Of a stretch of DNA of 64,000 nucleotides, positions 1,731 to 57,581 are shown piece after piece. Both the position numbers and the translations under genes were made by a program. The stretch covers positions 1 through 64,000 of the forward strand of contig NZ_LYVN01000003.1 of NCBI RefSeq assembly GCF_001990265.1, written 5' to 3'. The first letter of the stretch is position 1. Every line of letters begins with the position of its first letter. Origin of the DNA: Sphingopyxis sp. KK2 (GTDB lineage: Bacteria; Pseudomonadota; Alphaproteobacteria; Sphingomonadales; Sphingomonadaceae). The notes below the pieces were generated by a model, which did no database searches, had not been told where the DNA came from, and saw nothing but the letters and a program-made list of their open reading frames with translations.

Positions 1731-3118
1731 AGGGGCTGCTCCACCATCTGCGCACCCAGCTGCCCGCAGCGCTCTTCTATCTCGTGATCGCCACGGCGCT
1801 GATCCTGTCGCAGCATGCGATGGTCTTCCTCGCCTTTCTTGCGCTCGGCATGCCGCTCGGCCTCGACGACGCCTTCTGGCTCTTCCCGATCCGCCAGCTT
1901 GCGATACTGCCCGATGTCTCGCCGCTGGTCGCGATCTTCGGCTTTGCCTATTGCCTCGGCATCTCGGGCGCGCTCGCGATGCTCTCGCTGCGGCGCGCCG
2001 AGCGGCTCGGGCGCGGCGGCGGGCTCGCGCTCGCGGCGATGGTGCCGACGCTGCAGATCCTCGCGGTCATTGCGCTCGCGCTGCTGTGGCCGCGCCGCAG
2101 CGAAGCCGAGCTCCGGCGCGTCGGCGACCCGGCGCCACCGTACCAGCTCGCGATCGGCATCTTCGCCGGGACCGCGCTGGTCGTCGTCGCGGTCGCGGTG
2201 TCGGCGCTGACGATGGGCGCCTATGGCTGGGGACTGTTCGTCGCCACGCCGTTTCTCGTCGGGCTGATCACCGGCTTCCTCGTCAACCGCGGCCATGTGC
2301 GGAGCATGGCCGAAACCTTCGGCGCGGTCGCCGCGGCGGGCATGCTCGGCACGCTCGCGCTGCTGATGCTCGCGCTCGAGGGGCTGATGTGCGTGATCCT
2401 GATCCTGCCGCTCGCCGCGATCCTCGCGCTCGCGGGCGGCACAATCGGGCGCGCGGCGGCGAAGCGGCTCGTCGATCCGCGCCAGCCCTTCTACGGCCTC
2501 GCCGCACTGCCGCTGATCTTCCTCGTTGACGCCGCGATGCCGCCCGAAGTGCCGATCGACACGCACGCCGCCGTCACCATCGCCGCGCCGCCCGAGGCGG
2601 TGTGGGCCAGCCTGACCGCCGACCGCCCGGTGGCCGAAGCCCCGGGACTCGTCGGCCTCGCGGGCCTCGCCTATCCGATCGCGAGCCGCATCGTCGGCAC
2701 CGGCGAAGGCGCGCGGCGGATCGGCCGTTTTTCGACCGGCACCGCCGACGAACGGATCACGATTTGGCAGCCCGGCCGCGCGCTGGCGTTTCGCGTCGTG
2801 CGCCAGCCGCCCGCGATGGAGGAGATGAGCCCGTACCGCAAACTCCACACCCCGCACCTCATCGGATATTTCGACACCGGCGAGACGCGCTTCGACCTGG
2901 CGCCGCTGCCCGGCGGACGCACGCGGCTGACCGTGCGCGCGGGGCATGTGCTGCGCATCGACCCCGGCCTCTATTGGGAACCGATCGCGCGCTGGGCGAT
3001 CGGGCAGAATGTCGGGCGGGTGCTGACCGACATAAGGCGCGATGCCGAGGGTCGACACGAAGCCGGCTTGGCGGCACATTCGCGGCATGGAAAATCTCAC
3101 GCACAGCTGGCCCGCTGA
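1727..3118 (+). CDS. Multi-spanning membrane protein with C-terminal SRPBCC domain
   Basis: A 463-residue protein with two parts. Residues 1-275 contain about eight hydrophobic helices. Residues 285-450 look like a SRPBCC (START-like, ligand-binding) domain: an opening strand AAVTIAAPPEAVWASL and later strands ending in RTRLTVRAGH with a long final helix. SRPBCC domains bind hydrophobic ligands; coupling to a membrane part and to a desaturase suggests lipid sensing or modification, but the function is unknown. The start overlaps the desaturase stop as ATGA, so it is translationally coupled and probably under the same ArsR control. Confidence 0.75.
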   Translation: MKGLLHHLRTQLPAALFYLVIATALILSQHAMVFLAFLALGMPLGLDDAFWLFPIRQLAILPDVSPLVAIFGFAYCLGISGALAMLSLRRAERLGRGGGLALAAMVPTLQILAVIALALLWPRRSEAELRRVGDPAPPYQLAIGIFAGTALVVVAVAVSALTMGAYGWGLFVATPFLVGLITGFLVNRGHVRSMAETFGAVAAAGMLGTLALLMLALEGLMCVILILPLAAILALAGGTIGRAAAKRLVDPRQPFYGLAALPLIFLVDAAMPPEVPIDTHAAVTIAAPPEAVWASLTADRPVAEAPGLVGLAGLAYPIASRIVGTGEGARRIGRFSTGTADERITIWQPGRALAFRVVRQPPAMEEMSPYRKLHTPHLIGYFDTGETRFDLAPLPGGRTRLTVRAGHVLRIDPGLYWEPIARWAIGQNVGRVLTDIRRDAEGRHEAGLAAHSRHGKSHAQLAR

Positions 3119-4289
3119 GGCCGACAATATCCTTCCCGACCTCGTCGACCTGCGCCGCGCGATCCACCGCGAACCCGAGCTCGGCCTGCAGAACCCCAAG
3201 ACGCTCGCGAAGATCAAGGACGCGCTCGCGGGGCTGCCGCTCGAATTTCGCGAGGGACCGTCGACGACGGGGCTCGTCGCGACGCTGCGCGGCCCCGCCA
3301 ACGGGCGCACCGTGCTTCTGCGCGGCGACATGGATGCGTTGCCGCTCGTCGAGGACACGGGGCTCGACTTCACCTCCGAGACCAGCGGTGCGATGCACGC
3401 CTGCGGCCATGACACGCATGTTGCGATGCTCGTCGGCGCGGCGAAGCTGCTCTGCGCGGCACGCGATCGCCTGCCCGGCACCGTCCAGTTCATGTTCCAG
3501 CCCGGCGAGGAAGGCCATCATGGCGCGCGCTTCATGCTGGGCGACGGGCTGATCGACCCGCTGCCCGACGCGGCCTTTGCGCTCCACATCATGCCCAACG
3601 CGCCGCACGGCGTGTTCGCGGGGCGCGCCGGGCCGTTGCTCGCCTCGTCCGACGTGCTGTCGATCACCGTCAAGGGCGCGGGCGGCCACGCGTCGATGCC
3701 GCATGACGCGATCGACCCGATCCCGGTCGCCTGTTCGATCGTCACCGCGATCCAGACGATGGTGACGCGCCGCGTGTCGGTGTTCGACCCCGCGGTGATC
3801 ACGATCGCGAAGATCGCGGCGGGCACGACGAACAATATCATCCCCGAAACCGCCGAACTGCTCGGCACGATCCGCACCCTGTCGCCGCACCGCCGCGCCG
3901 CGGTCGCCGCCGAACTGAAGCGCCTCGCCCCCGCGATCGCCGAGGCGCATGGATGCACCGCCGAGGTCGAGATCGTCGAGGGCTTTCCCGTCACCGTATG
4001 CGACAGCCGCGCCGCCGCCTTCGGCCAGCGCGTCGTCGAAGAGACGTTCGGCGAGGCGGCGTGGCTGACGATGGACCATCCGGTGATGGGCGCCGAGGAT
4101 TTCGCCTATGTGCTCGAAAAGGTGCCCGGCGCGATGTTCTGGCTCGGCGCGAGCCACGAAGGGAGCGACTGGCGCAGCTGCTGCGGCCTGCATTCGAACC
4201 GCATGGTGCTCGACGAGAAAGTGATGGCACGCGGTGCGGCGCTGCACGCGGCGCTGGCGGAACGGTTCTTGAACGAGGGGTTCGGGTAG
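3087..4289 (+). CDS. M20-family amidohydrolase (hippurate hydrolase-like)
   Basis: About 400 residues of the M20D peptidase / N-acyl-amino-acid amidohydrolase family. Metal-binding and catalytic segments are clear: RGDMDALP, MHACGHDTHVAML, QPGEEGHHGARFM and a C-terminal DHPVMGAEDFAYVL. The dimerisation domain lies around GAGGHASMPHDAIDPI. The enzyme would hydrolyse an acyl-amino acid or related amide in the cytoplasm. Two starts are possible: ATG 3042, behind an AAGG, gives a 15-residue extension; ATG 3087 gives the usual N-terminus. Either overlaps the end of the preceding gene (3118), pointing to one transcript. Confidence 0.87.
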   Translation: MENLTHSWPAEADNILPDLVDLRRAIHREPELGLQNPKTLAKIKDALAGLPLEFREGPSTTGLVATLRGPANGRTVLLRGDMDALPLVEDTGLDFTSETSGAMHACGHDTHVAMLVGAAKLLCAARDRLPGTVQFMFQPGEEGHHGARFMLGDGLIDPLPDAAFALHIMPNAPHGVFAGRAGPLLASSDVLSITVKGAGGHASMPHDAIDPIPVACSIVTAIQTMVTRRVSVFDPAVITIAKIAAGTTNNIIPETAELLGTIRTLSPHRRAAVAAELKRLAPAIAEAHGCTAEVEIVEGFPVTVCDSRAAAFGQRVVEETFGEAAWLTMDHPVMGAEDFAYVLEKVPGAMFWLGASHEGSDWRSCCGLHSNRMVLDEKVMARGAALHAALAERFLNEGFG

Positions 4290-4297
4290 GAAAATTA

Positions 4298-4755
4298 TCT
4301 CACGCAAAGGCGCAAAGGCACAAAGAAGGAGATAAGGTGGACGTCGAGGAACTGGCGAGCATAGCTGTCGATTGCGGCTTCCATCTCCACAAGGAGTTGG
4401 GTCCCGGATTGCTGGAGTCGGCCTATGAGGCGATCATGGCCGACCAGCTTGCGCGGCGAGGCCTGAATGTCCTTCGCCAGGTGCCTATCCCGCTTCGGTA
4501 CGGGAGCGTCGAACTTGCCGAGGGGTTTCGAGCCGATCTGTTGATCGAAGGCCGATTGCTCGTCGAATTGAAATCCGTTGAGCGGCTTTCGCCGCTCTAT
4601 GGCAAACAAGTCCTGACCTATCTTCGTCTGCTCGACATGCCGCTCGGCCTTCTGATCAATTTCGGCGGGGAGACGTTCAAGGAGGGCGTGAAGCGCATCG
4701 TCAACAACCACCGTCCTTAGCGCCCTTCTTTGTGCCTTCGCGCCTTTGCGTGAGA
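4298..4755. mobile_element. GxxExxY element with 32-bp terminal inverted repeats (copy A)
   Basis: The left arm 4298-4329 begins TCTCACGCAAAGGCGC and continues with AAAGGCACAAAGAAGG. The right arm 4724-4755 is its reverse complement with one mismatch in 32 bases. The arms enclose only the GxxExxY coding region (4337-4720), and the left arm supplies half of that gene's AAGGAG. I see no target-site duplication. The arm type recurs at 30903-31110, 32226-32438, 42719-42966 and 57521-57557. That this is a mobile unit is inference from structure and copy number. Confidence 0.6.
4337..4720 (+). CDS. GxxExxY protein, PD-(D/E)XK nuclease-like
   Basis: A 127-residue protein with the family's eponymous motif at G24-E27-Y30 (GPGLLESAY) and the sequence D68...E77-L-K79 (VELKS), which matches the PD-(D/E)XK nuclease active-site pattern; Q91 follows on the next helix. 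The start is GTG at 4337, with AAGGAG at 4326-4331. Third-codon positions are visibly less G/C-rich than in neighbours, suggesting acquisition. The gene is bracketed exactly by the inverted repeats 4298-4329 and 4724-4755. No biological role is established for the family to my knowledge; nuclease activity is inferred from the motif only. Confidence 0.85.
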   Translation: MDVEELASIAVDCGFHLHKELGPGLLESAYEAIMADQLARRGLNVLRQVPIPLRYGSVELAEGFRADLLIEGRLLVELKSVERLSPLYGKQVLTYLRLLDMPLGLLINFGGETFKEGVKRIVNNHRP

Positions 4756-4826
4756 TTTGACGACCTCGACTTTGCAAACAGCCTCGCGGCCCTATGATTC
4801 CCCCACCCCATCCGAAGGACCACCCC

Positions 4827-30902: not shown

Positions 30903-31110
30903 AAGGCCGCGAGGGCGCAAAAAAGGGGGAAAGGGACTCACACAAAGACACAAAGAGGGCAGCTTTTTCGCGCACCGCTGCTCCAGGGTCGCGCGAAGCG
31001 CCTTATGGAGGGTCGCCTGCGGCGACGCGCGACGCCCGCCATGTGGTGCGCCCTCTTTGTGTCTTTGTGTGAGATCCTTCTTCTTGGCGCCTTCGCGCCT
31101 TTGCGTGAGA
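30903..31110. repeat. Nested inverted-repeat element, gene-less copy B
   Basis: The inner arms 30937-30960 and 31049-31072 are perfect 24-bp reverse complements (CTCACACAAAGACACAAAG plus AGGGC). The outer right arm 31085-31110 ends CGCCTTTGCGTGAGAT, as in copy A; the outer left arm is decayed (GAGGGCGCAAAAAAGG near 30911). The 88-base loop shares the block TCGCCTGCGGCGACG and GACGCCCGC with copy D. It ends 32 bases from the stop of the next minus-strand gene. Confidence 0.8.
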
Positions 31111-31141
31111 TTATTTCAGAACCCACTCCCGCAGATCAAAT

Positions 31142-32225: not shown

Positions 32226-32438
32226 TCTCACGCAAAGGCGCGAAAGCGCAAAGAAAGAGACTCACACAAAGACACAAAGAGGGCGTTCCTGCCCCGCTGG
32301 CGTCGGCCCGTCGCCGAAGGCGACCGTGTAAAATGCGCTTTGCGCGGGATCCGGCCCTTCGGGCAGCGGCGTCGCCTGCCCTCTTTGTGTCTTTGTGTGA
32401 GATAATTCTTCTTCGCGCCTTCGCGCCTTTGCGTGAGA
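32226..32438. repeat. Nested inverted-repeat element, gene-less copy C
   Basis: Outer arms 32226-32255 and 32409-32438 (TCTCACGCAAAGGCGC and its complement) match at 28 of 30 positions. Inner arms 32261-32284 and 32378-32401 are perfect 24-bp complements identical to those of copy B. The 93-base loop read on the minus strand aligns with the loop of copy D (GCGCAAAGCGCATTTTA ... TCGCCTTCGGCGACGG). The element stops five bases before the recQ stop codon. Confidence 0.88.
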
Positions 32439-32443
32439 TTTTT

Positions 32444-42718: not shown

Positions 42719-42966
42719 TCTCACGCAAAGGCGCAAAGGCGCAAAGAAAAGGGGCTCACACAAAGACACAAAGAGGGCAGTCCATGCCGCCGGCGCGGGG
42801 CGAGGCTCGCGCGAAGCGCAATTGGAAATATCGCCTGCGGCGACGGGACGACGCCCGCTGGCCAGGCGCGCCCTCTTTGTGTCTTCGTGTGAGAATCTCT
42901 TTCTTCTTCACGCCTTTGCGCCCCTTCGACTGCCTTGCGGGCGCTCAGGACAGGCTTTGCGTGAGA
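42719..42966. repeat. Nested inverted-repeat element, gene-less copy D with an inserted repeat
   Basis: Outer left arm 42719-42750 (TCTCACGCAAAGGCGCAAAG ...) and outer right arm 42901-42966. Inner arms 42755-42778 and 42870-42893 are 24-bp complements with one mismatch. The outer right arm is interrupted by about 33 bases at 42923-42955 (CCTTCGACTGCC ... GCTCAGGACAGG) that resemble the repeat family of 52101-52190. The loop matches copy B and, inverted, copy C. Confidence 0.85.
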
Positions 42967-42996
42967 TTCTTCTTCCTGCTTCCTGCGCGGGACAGC

Positions 42997-57520: not shown

Positions 57521-57557
57521 CGCCCTCTTCTTCATGCCTTTGCGCCTTTGCGTGAGA
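57521..57557. repeat. Solo right arm of the CTCACGCAAAGG family (copy E)
   Basis: CGCCCTCTTCTTCATGCC followed by TTTGCGCCTTTGCGTGAGA matches the outer right arms of copies A, C and D. No left arm is present within the 90-bp gap, so it is a fragment. It lies between the lipoprotein terminator and the end of the minus-strand membrane gene (57582). Confidence 0.8.
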
Positions 57558-57581
57558 TTTTCCTGACGCTGCCGAGCGGGA

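What the first reader, a model, noticed from the sequence alone, without database searches (positions are those of the whole stretch)
4298..4755. GxxExxY nuclease-like gene bounded by 32-bp terminal inverted repeats
Seen: the coding region 4337-4720 is framed by arms that match as reverse complements at 31 of 32 positions, and the left arm even supplies part of the ribosome binding site. The product has G24-E27-Y30 and a D68...E77-x-K79 nuclease pattern. Known: GxxExxY proteins are widespread and uncharacterised (PD-(D/E)XK-like). Inference: gene plus arms form a compact element, in which the nuclease-like protein may act on its own ends or on hairpin RNA/DNA made by related gene-less copies. 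This would be a new kind of minimal selfish or regulatory unit.
Basis: partly seen in the sequence, partly recalled or inferred. Interest (0 to 1): 0.78.

Follow-up and report, generated by a model that had tools for sequence, protein, structure and literature searches.

The report
Nuclease gene with dispersed hairpin arms
A small nuclease-like gene sits between two mirror-image DNA arms, and the same arms, without the gene, are scattered through the genomes that carry it, as if the protein looks after or spreads a population of small DNA hairpins; similar arrangements turn up in several bacterial phyla.

Summary
In detail: a GxxExxY gene (TIGR04256/PF13366, PD-(D/E)XK fold) at 4337-4720 lies between 33-nt inverted arms (32 of 33 matched). 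Arms flank 113 of 138 distinct GxxExxY genes examined (64 of 65 Sphingopyxis, 38 of 60 in other phyla) against 0 of 230 control placements. Arms are tandem short units, mostly period 8, 8-11 in distant phyla, and co-vary with protein clade. In 80 Sphingopyxis genomes arm motifs outside the gene are abundant mainly where the gene exists (median 34 against 2.5) and gene-less copies are polymorphic between relatives. 61 armed Sphingopyxis genes occupy six neighbourhoods; 20 chosen gene-less copies occupied 19. Interiors flip in two neighbourhoods. No target duplication was detected; few plasmids (8 of 72,556) and no phages (of 50,697) matched. It works like RAYT-REPIN (sedentary gene plus dispersed hairpins) but with an unrelated nuclease, so it is not a member. 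That the protein moves or maintains the hairpins is inferred, not shown. Unexpectedly, S23/four-helix (TIGR02436) genes share the design with mostly period-7 arms (44 of 61 loci). No description was found in the open literature searched.

The parts
4297..4756 (+). whole gene-bearing element (arm, gene, arm)
   Evidence: in the 30 best-matching Sphingopyxis loci (of 80 genomes searched) 16 show no arm element at this spot (sorted by eye)
4297..4329 (+). left arm: tandem octamer units ACGCAAAG/GCGCAAAG/GCACAAAG after TCTC
4337..4720 (+). GxxExxY protein gene, 127 aa, PD-(D/E)XK fold, G24 E27 Y30 D67 E77 K79 Q91
4724..4756 (-). right arm, reverse complement of the left arm at 32 of 33 positions
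30937..31111 (.). gene-less element: inner CACAAAGACACAAAG arms, plus an outer CGCAAAGGCGC-type right arm
32226..32440 (.). gene-less nested element: outer CGCAAAGGCGC-type arms around inner CACAAAGACACAAAG arms and a GC-rich loop
   Evidence: the same place holds other arm elements or none in relatives
42719..42968 (.). gene-less nested element of the same build; the outer right arm is interrupted
57526..57559 (-). lone right arm

Best explanation
The locus is the gene-bearing copy of a two-part hairpin-repeat system. Part one is a mostly sedentary chromosomal gene for a small PD-(D/E)XK nuclease (GxxExxY), enclosed by inverted arms of about three tandem octamers. Part two is a population of gene-less hairpins (75-233 bp among the 20 measured) built from the same arms, dispersed at many sites, often nested in one another. 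Proposed working: the protein recognises its own clade's arm units when the arms form a hairpin, cruciform or four-way junction, cuts there, and host replication and repair copy the hairpin into new sites or invert the interior. Shown: arms around most homologues examined, arm-protein co-variation, co-occurrence, polymorphic gene-less copies, interiors in both directions, few gene neighbourhoods in one genus, nuclease fold. Inferred: that this protein binds or cuts the arms, and that it is what spreads the hairpins.
For: Arms in 113 of 138 distinct genes against 0 of 230 placements (earlier tally 97 of 109 against 2 of 327). Arm distance follows protein distance: Mantel rho 0.557 over 96 armed genes, null maximum 0.212; 0.596 within 58 Sphingopyxis genes, null maximum 0.109. 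Motif hits minus two per gene: median 34 in 40 genomes with the gene, 2.5 in 40 without, p 3e-9. Type-specific: CGCGGAG-type copies median 15.5 in 14 genomes with that gene clade, 2.5 in 26 with only other types (p 8e-4), 0 in 40 with none. 61 armed Sphingopyxis genes in six neighbourhoods, against 19 neighbourhoods for 20 gene-less CGCGGAG elements that I chose from three genomes. At the site of L257 7 of 27 resolved loci carry an arm element and 20 do not. Gene orientation is 8 to 7 in one neighbourhood, 5 changes on the protein tree. L107 keeps the 3' end of a GxxExxY gene between arms: an internally deleted copy. RAYT-type Y1 transposase is found in only 15 of 80 genomes and not in G000, G009, G013, G062, G063, G064 or G073, which have 36-169 motif hits. 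Nearest solved folds: Cas4 SSO0001, Z 9.1 over 100 residues, rmsd 4.3; Holliday resolvase Hjc, Z 6.5 over 87, rmsd 3.4.
Against: Seven of 40 genomes without the gene still have 20-46 motif hits (relics of lost genes would explain this, untested). G019 has four genes and only 29 hits, and G033, G058 and G074 have a gene with 3 or fewer extra hits. The CGCAGAG type is only borderline specific (own gene against other types p 0.052). In one search two genomes with the matching gene (G058, G019) count as -2 because their genes' own arms are missing or do not fit the pattern. Relatedness of genomes was not corrected. Arm-protein co-variation would also follow from joint inheritance. No activity was tested. 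25 of 138 genes show no arms at the threshold, 22 of them in other phyla. Orientation labels are spread over the tree no less than shuffled ones, so re-insertion is not excluded. Sedentariness was tested in one genus only; other phyla have up to 22 family matches in a genome, fragments included. Z under 8 is common by chance in such searches, so the Hjc resemblance is weak (note).
Confidence: 0.52

Rival explanations
1. A conventional transposon-like unit: gene plus arms moves as an insertion-sequence analogue with the nuclease as transposase, and gene-less copies are its MITEs made by internal deletion.
For: Terminal inverted arms, gene-less derivatives, and one clear internally deleted copy, L107, 83% identical over 64 nt to a gene element's 3' end, E 9e-14; several copies in some genomes of other phyla, 22 matches (fragments included) in G091; sparse cross-phylum distribution. 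Within the window's own neighbourhood genes use two spots, on either side of the Transgly_assoc gene.
Against: No target-site duplication: mean longest flanking direct repeat 2.64 against 2.69 +/- 0.10 expected, n = 98. Armed genes confined to six neighbourhoods in 61 cases. With this protein as query 8 of 72,556 plasmid records and 0 of 50,697 phage records match. The interiors of 23 gene-less elements (20 CGCGGAG, 3 of the window) have no match to gene elements better than E 0.025.
Confidence: 0.2
2. The gene is a passenger: hairpins are spread by host recombination, replication slippage or another enzyme, and the gene merely happens to be enclosed by arms (or is protected by them).
For: 20 or more motif hits persist in 7 of 40 genomes without any GxxExxY gene; hairpins of other families share the same intergenic sites.
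Against: Enclosure of 64 of 65 Sphingopyxis genes, arm-clade match, type-specific co-occurrence; the one Sphingopyxis gene without arms (G058, L046) sits in a genome with only two motif hits, none of the CGCGGAG type of its clade.
Confidence: 0.14
3. The arms act in RNA: the transcript folds into a long stem that hides the ribosome-binding site or is cut (by RNase III or by the protein), giving autoregulation or mRNA processing as in 23S rRNA intervening sequences; the dispersed hairpins are processing or termination signals.
For: Left arm overlaps the ribosome-binding region; 20 gene-less elements fold at -52 to -104 kcal/mol; elements often lie just after stop codons (by eye); S23 proteins, known from rRNA intervening sequences, have the same gene-in-arms design (PMC4990558).
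Against: Does not by itself explain dispersal, polymorphism between relatives, or interiors in both directions. Closest folds are mostly DNA nucleases, though tRNA-splicing endonucleases also appear.
Confidence: 0.1
4. An addiction or defence module in which the nuclease is restrained by, or targets, arm-like DNA.
For: PD-(D/E)XK fold; patchy presence, 40 of 80 Sphingopyxis genomes.
Against: No second gene fits inside the 460-bp element; few plasmid and no phage matches. PADLOC was not searched.
Confidence: 0.04

Closest known systems
RAYT-REPIN (REP-associated tyrosine transposase with REP doublets forming hairpins; PMC3116915, passages read)
   Same: Gene flanked by the repeat and, in Sphingopyxis, sedentary; dispersed inverted-pair hairpins; several 'flavours' each tied to one gene clade; hairpins inserted into or next to each other.
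   Different: The protein is a PD-(D/E)XK nuclease-like GxxExxY, not a Y1/HUH transposase; arms are about three tandem units of 8-11 bp enclosing the gene on both sides; Y1_Tnp was found in only 15 of 80 of these genomes.
23S rRNA intervening sequences encoding S23 (PMC4990558, abstract and introduction read)
   Same: A small ORF inside complementary arms; patchy distribution. Intervening sequences replace rRNA tetraloops; some elements here lie inside another hairpin.
   Different: The protein is a four-helix bundle; the element lies in rRNA and is cut out by RNase III. Here the element is intergenic. S23-type genes fetched here share the arm design but mostly with period-7 units.
MITEs and their parent insertion sequences
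   Same: Terminal inverted arms, gene-less copies, an internally deleted derivative.
   Different: No target-site duplication detected, no known transposase, gene mostly sedentary in Sphingopyxis, gene-less interiors not recognisably derived from the gene.
Cas4 / lambda-exonuclease / Hjc-type PD-(D/E)XK nucleases
   Same: Fold and D, ExK, Q residues (that these mark the superfamily is recalled).
   Different: Only 127 aa; no sequence match in the PDB at E 0.1 or better.

Membership tests
GxxExxY family (TIGR04256) / PF13366 PDDEXK_3 | score over curated cut-off | tested here: met
   119.4 bits against 35; 116.6 bits against 22
GxxExxY family (TIGR04256) / PF13366 PDDEXK_3 | GxxExxY motif and D...ExK nuclease residues conserved | tested here: met
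   invariant in 32 aligned sequences
PD-(D/E)XK fold | core fold | tested here: met
   AF2 pLDDT 94, pTM 0.88; Cas4 4ic1 Z 9.1, rmsd 4.3, 100 aligned; no Foldseek match at E 0.001 or better
RAYT-REPIN | partner protein is a Y1 (HUH) tyrosine transposase | tested here: not met
   protein is PF13366; no Y1_Tnp match in G000
RAYT-REPIN | dispersed inverted-pair hairpins related to the gene's flanking repeat | tested here: met
RAYT-REPIN | gene few-copy and not self-mobile | tested here: inconclusive
   in Sphingopyxis 1-4 genes per gene-bearing genome and six neighbourhoods for 61 genes; in other phyla up to 22 matches, fragments included
RAYT-REPIN | excision or transposition of hairpins seen in reads | not testable with these tools
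   no read data
Insertion sequence / MITE | terminal inverted repeats | tested here: met
   113 of 138 genes
Insertion sequence / MITE | target-site duplication | tested here: not met
   98 gene-bearing elements, no excess over shuffled pairs
Insertion sequence / MITE | gene itself relocates | tested here: inconclusive
   six neighbourhoods in Sphingopyxis, but two spots within one of them and up to 22 matches in one genome of another phylum
23S rRNA intervening sequence | located in rRNA, S23 ORF | tested here: not met
   intergenic, between ORF 3042-4289 and a Transgly_assoc gene; protein is PF13366
Known RNA family (Rfam) | gathering-score match in the window | tested here: not met
   0 matches

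The most novel reading that the evidence does not exclude
There is an unrecognised, phylum-spanning class of 'arm elements': small proteins of unrelated folds (GxxExxY PD-(D/E)XK nuclease; S23 four-helix bundle) each enclosed by inverted arms of tandem short units with a class-typical period (8-11 against mostly 7), each arm dialect read by its own protein, with gene-less hairpins as the replicating population and hairpin loops as a preferred landing place. GxxExxY would be a junction- or cruciform-specific nuclease that drives copying and flipping, and 23S rRNA intervening sequences would be the S23 branch landed in rRNA loops.
Probability: 0.3. Interest if true: 0.93.

Novelty: new variant of a known kind. 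Interest (0 to 1): 0.78.

Why it matters
GxxExxY and S23/four-helix proteins are widely annotated families whose function, as far as I found or recall, is unknown. A recurrent arm architecture gives both a concrete, testable substrate. If the nuclease maintains the hairpins, bacteria have evolved a second, unrelated answer to the RAYT-REPIN arrangement, which speaks to the open question of how short palindromic repeats persist and spread in genomes.

Tried and rejected
Target-site duplication: tested on 98 elements, none found. Rfam: 0 matches in the window. Solved-structure sequence search: best E 0.17, lmo1582, not trusted. RAYT as the hidden driver: Y1_Tnp in 15 of 80 genomes, absent from many motif-rich ones. 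Genes nested inside a second inverted pair: 0 of 61 at score 12 or more, control 7 of 302. For gene-less CGCGGAG elements 6 of 20 lie inside an outer CGCAGAG pair, but the mis-paired control is not informative because those arms are alike everywhere (51 of 189). Mis-paired flank control: 3 of 81 for GxxExxY, 1 of 91 for S23. Gene-less interiors as gene remnants: 23 interiors, best E 0.025, rejected except for L107. Orientation labels in the amidohydrolase neighbourhood are not clustered on the tree (5 changes; 54% of shuffles do no worse), so flips may be frequent, but the same pattern could come from re-insertion. In the 114-row tree the L001 row was translated in the wrong frame by my script (that misframed protein was also a tblastn query) and is ignored; its flanks are measured at nearly the right place. 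One search scored '-' strand loci in the wrong direction and was superseded. One search ended with a write error after printing its results, and with an attribute error after printing the tree. Literature: 'GxxExxY' occurs in two papers, in passing (passages read); PF13366/TIGR04256 in one unrelated paper (listing only); 'PDDEXK_3' or 'inverted repeat' gave 16,107 papers of which the ten listed hold no PDDEXK_3 (listing only); six arm strings in one unrelated fish eDNA paper (listing only); intervening-sequence terms, listing of 15 of 17; S23/four-helix terms in 21 papers, listing only except passages of PMC8700078 and PMC10910872, none of which described flanking arms; Sphingopyxis plus repeats, 10 of 14 listed, listing only; RAYT plus plasmids, nothing used. 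Subscription papers and NCBI family notes were not visible, so prior notice of these arms cannot be excluded. No PADLOC, PHROGs or viral fold-library search was made.

Full report
WHAT IS THERE. The window lies in a Sphingopyxis-like genome (G000, 4.34 Mb in 320 contigs; the closest protein matches are from Sphingopyxis). ORF 4337-4720 encodes 127 aa and is a GxxExxY protein. It is enclosed by arms 4297-4329 and 4724-4756, complementary at 32 of 33 positions. The arm reads TCTC-ACGCAAAG-GCGCAAAG-GCACAAAG, a tandem of octamers. A second GxxExxY gene in the same genome is enclosed by CTCACACAAAGGCACAAAGGCAC arms. The window also holds three gene-less inverted pairs and one lone arm, two of the pairs nested (CGCAAAG-type arms around CACAAAG-type arms).

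ARE THE ARMS TIED TO THE GENE? I collected GxxExxY loci from Sphingopyxis genomes (65 matches in 40 of 80 genomes), from a scan of 84,980 species genomes with the window protein (42 loci) and from 17 genomes of other phyla found by that scan, and scored the best inverted match between the 300-bp flanks. After removing duplicates 113 of 138 genes score 14 or more. By the script's groups this is 61 of 62, 14 of 16 and 38 of 60; the middle group holds three further Sphingopyxis genes, all armed, so the figures are 64 of 65 for Sphingopyxis, 11 of 13 for other Pseudomonadota and 38 of 60 for other phyla. Random placements of the same geometry give 0 of 230. Earlier tallies: 97 of 109 against 2 of 327 with 180-bp flanks; 24 of 45 against 1 of 90 for 30 loci from other phyla plus 15 that were distant or had failed before, some of them the same gene; 20 of 28 against 3 of 81 mis-paired flanks for a further set from other phyla that overlaps the others in part. 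removes the duplicates. Arms in distant phyla differ in sequence (for example ATCCGCAGATTACGCAGATTTCGCAGA, ACCACCAAGGCACTAAGACACCAAG, TGACAGGATAACAGGATA) but keep a build of short tandem units. The best self-match period is 8 in 71 of 91 arms of at least 22 nt in the main set, 9 in 12, 10 in 6, other in 2; in the extra other-phyla set it is 10 in 9, 9 in 3, 8 in 3 and 11 in 2 of 17.

CO-VARIATION. On a tree of 114 proteins the arm types follow protein clades (CGCGGAG, CGCAGAG, TTTCGCGCAAAG, TTCGCACRAAG, CTCGCACAAAG, and CACAAAG together with CGCAAAG, read by eye; few columns, many forks unresolved). Mantel rho is 0.557 for 96 genes (null maximum 0.212) and 0.596 for 58 Sphingopyxis genes (null maximum 0.109). 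Within an element the two arms match at mean score 25.4; arms of different elements match at 22.7 if the proteins are close and 7.7 if they are distant. Arms thus diverge between clades while staying complementary within each element.

GENE-LESS COPIES. The motif [18 protein letters not shown] (up to 1 mismatch) was counted in 80 Sphingopyxis genomes. After subtracting two per gene the median is 34 in the 40 genomes with the gene and 2.5 in the 40 without (p 3e-9; Spearman 0.72). Exceptions: seven genomes without the gene have 20-46 hits, and G033, G058 and G074 have a gene and 3 or fewer extra hits. Type-specific patterns: CGCGGAG copies median 15.5 with the matching gene clade (n = 14), 2.5 with only other types (n = 26, p 8e-4), 0 with none (n = 40); CGCAGAG copies 13.5 (n = 10), 3 (n = 30, p 0.052), 0 (n = 40); the ratio of the two types separates the two groups (p 5.5e-4). 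Two matching-gene genomes count as -2 because their genes' arms are missing or do not fit the pattern. Relatedness was not corrected. Twenty gene-less CGCGGAG elements that I chose from three genomes are 83-233 bp by one boundary rule and 75-191 bp by another, with predicted RNA energies of -52 to -104 kcal/mol; many carry inner GCCGCGAAGCGGC and GGGCC...GGCCC palindromes. Their interiors and those of the window's three elements have no match to gene elements better than E 0.025.

MOVEMENT AND FLIPPING. At the window's own spot the 30 best-matching loci of 80 Sphingopyxis genomes show: gene in the same direction 6 (L094-L099, the last with an in-frame stop), gene reversed 3 (L106, L117, L123), gene-less hairpin 3 (L105, L111, L112), an internally deleted gene copy 1 (L107), a stub 1 (L120), none 16, of which 12 have the amidohydrolase-like and Transgly_assoc genes directly joined (sorted by eye; two of these 12, L110 and L122, carry a GxxExxY gene beyond the Transgly_assoc gene). 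L107's interior matches the 3' end of a gene element at 83% over 64 nt. At the site of L257 27 of the 30 best-matching loci could be resolved: 7 carry an arm element and 20 do not, some of these holding other hairpins. The interior of the gene-less element is in one direction in G009, G046 and G036 and in the other in G022, G038 and G011, relative to the same host genes (read by eye). Comparison with the arm-free G045 and G032 shows no duplication of target bases, by eye and within the limits of about 90% identity. Across 98 gene-bearing elements flanking direct repeats are no longer than in shuffled pairs. The armed genes are sedentary in this genus: 61 of them fall into six neighbourhoods (23, 15, 11, 8, 2, 2), nearly every pair within a neighbourhood sharing flanks directly (245 of 253, 105 of 105, 55 of 55, 28 of 28 pairs). 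Orientation is fixed in five and 8 to 7 in the sixth, with 5 changes on the protein tree; that sixth neighbourhood is the window's own and comprises spots on both sides of the Transgly_assoc gene. Twenty chosen gene-less copies fall into 19 neighbourhoods. With the window protein as query 8 of 72,556 plasmid records (all predicted non-mobilizable) and 0 of 50,697 phage records match.

THE PROTEIN. Invariant residues are G24, E27, Y30, F64, D67, E77, K79, Q91, with Y95 nearly so; Q-x3-Y after D...ExK is, from recall, a mark of RecB/Cas4-type nucleases. The AlphaFold2 model has pLDDT 94. Foldseek lists LHK-Exo and Cas4 SSO0001 (4ic1 chain B, probability 1.00, TM 0.56 of the query) among its best, none at E 0.001 or better; tRNA-splicing endonucleases and Holliday resolvases are also listed. 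The second look gives 4ic1 Z 9.1, 3ijm Z 8.4, Hjc Z 6.5. This supports a nuclease of the exonuclease or junction-resolvase type but proves no substrate.

MECHANISM. I propose that the protein recognises its arm dialect in a folded form (hairpin, cruciform or four-way junction) and cuts it, and that replication and repair then invert the interior or lay down copies elsewhere. Interiors in both directions, lack of target duplication, sedentary genes and dispersed hairpins all fit. The cutting itself, and causation, are inferred. Nesting of one arm type within another suggests that existing hairpins are favoured landing places; [quoted passage not shown] No control for this preference was informative here.

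AN UNEXPECTED SECOND FAMILY. Four-helix/S23 proteins (TIGR02436) occur in 17 of 22 genomes searched, up to 24 matches each, fragments included. Their flanks also hold inverted arms of tandem units: 20 of 30 loci against 1 of 90 placements and 24 of 31 against 1 of 91 mis-paired flanks, together 44 of 61. In the second set the period is 7 in 17 and 8 in 6 of 23. So two small protein families of unrelated fold (four-helix bundle by its family name) share one element design with different typical periods.

COMPARISON. It works like RAYT-REPIN and resembles an intervening sequence in its gene-in-arms anatomy, but it fails the defining protein test of the first and the location and protein tests of the second; as an insertion sequence it fails the duplication test. 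It is a member of the GxxExxY protein family. I found no description of the arms in the open literature searched, which does not cover most subscription journals.

VERDICT. Observation confirmed; interpretation partly supported and widened. The association is very strong, the mechanism moderate.

Noticed in passing
L217-L246 and L296-L326 (mostly other phyla): TIGR02436 four-helix/S23 genes are enclosed by inverted arms of tandem units of about 7 bp (AGGTAGC, AGTGATG, GTCAGAG and the like) in 44 of 61 loci.
   Followed up: partly
window 4295-4335: Read in frame, the left arm encodes SHAKAQRHKE just upstream of the gene (ORF 3953-4720), so gene callers may start GxxExxY proteins inside the arm; the L081 stretch aligned begins with SHAKPRS from its arm.
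   Followed up: no
L260 and site B loci L159, L168, L171: A different palindromic repeat (TTCGACAAGCTC type) sits in the loop of several arm elements.
   Followed up: no
G000 contigs C43, C85, C171, C237: Several arm copies lie within about 200 bases of contig ends, so these repeats may break short-read assemblies and copy numbers may be underestimates.
   Followed up: no
L224 (G073:C243:10254-10574): The only TIGR02436 match among the five Sphingopyxis genomes searched; it has an in-frame TGA but identical AGGTAGC-unit arms on both sides.
   Followed up: no
L046 (G058:C1:178914-179261): A GxxExxY gene without detectable arms, in a 2.3-Mb genome with only two arm-motif hits and none of the CGCGGAG type; perhaps a gene that lost its hairpins.
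   Followed up: partly
model m42f84ab5845b: Wolbachia CinA/CinB complex chains rank third and fourth in the fold comparison (Z 7.6 and 7.3), close to other nuclease-fold chains.
   Followed up: no
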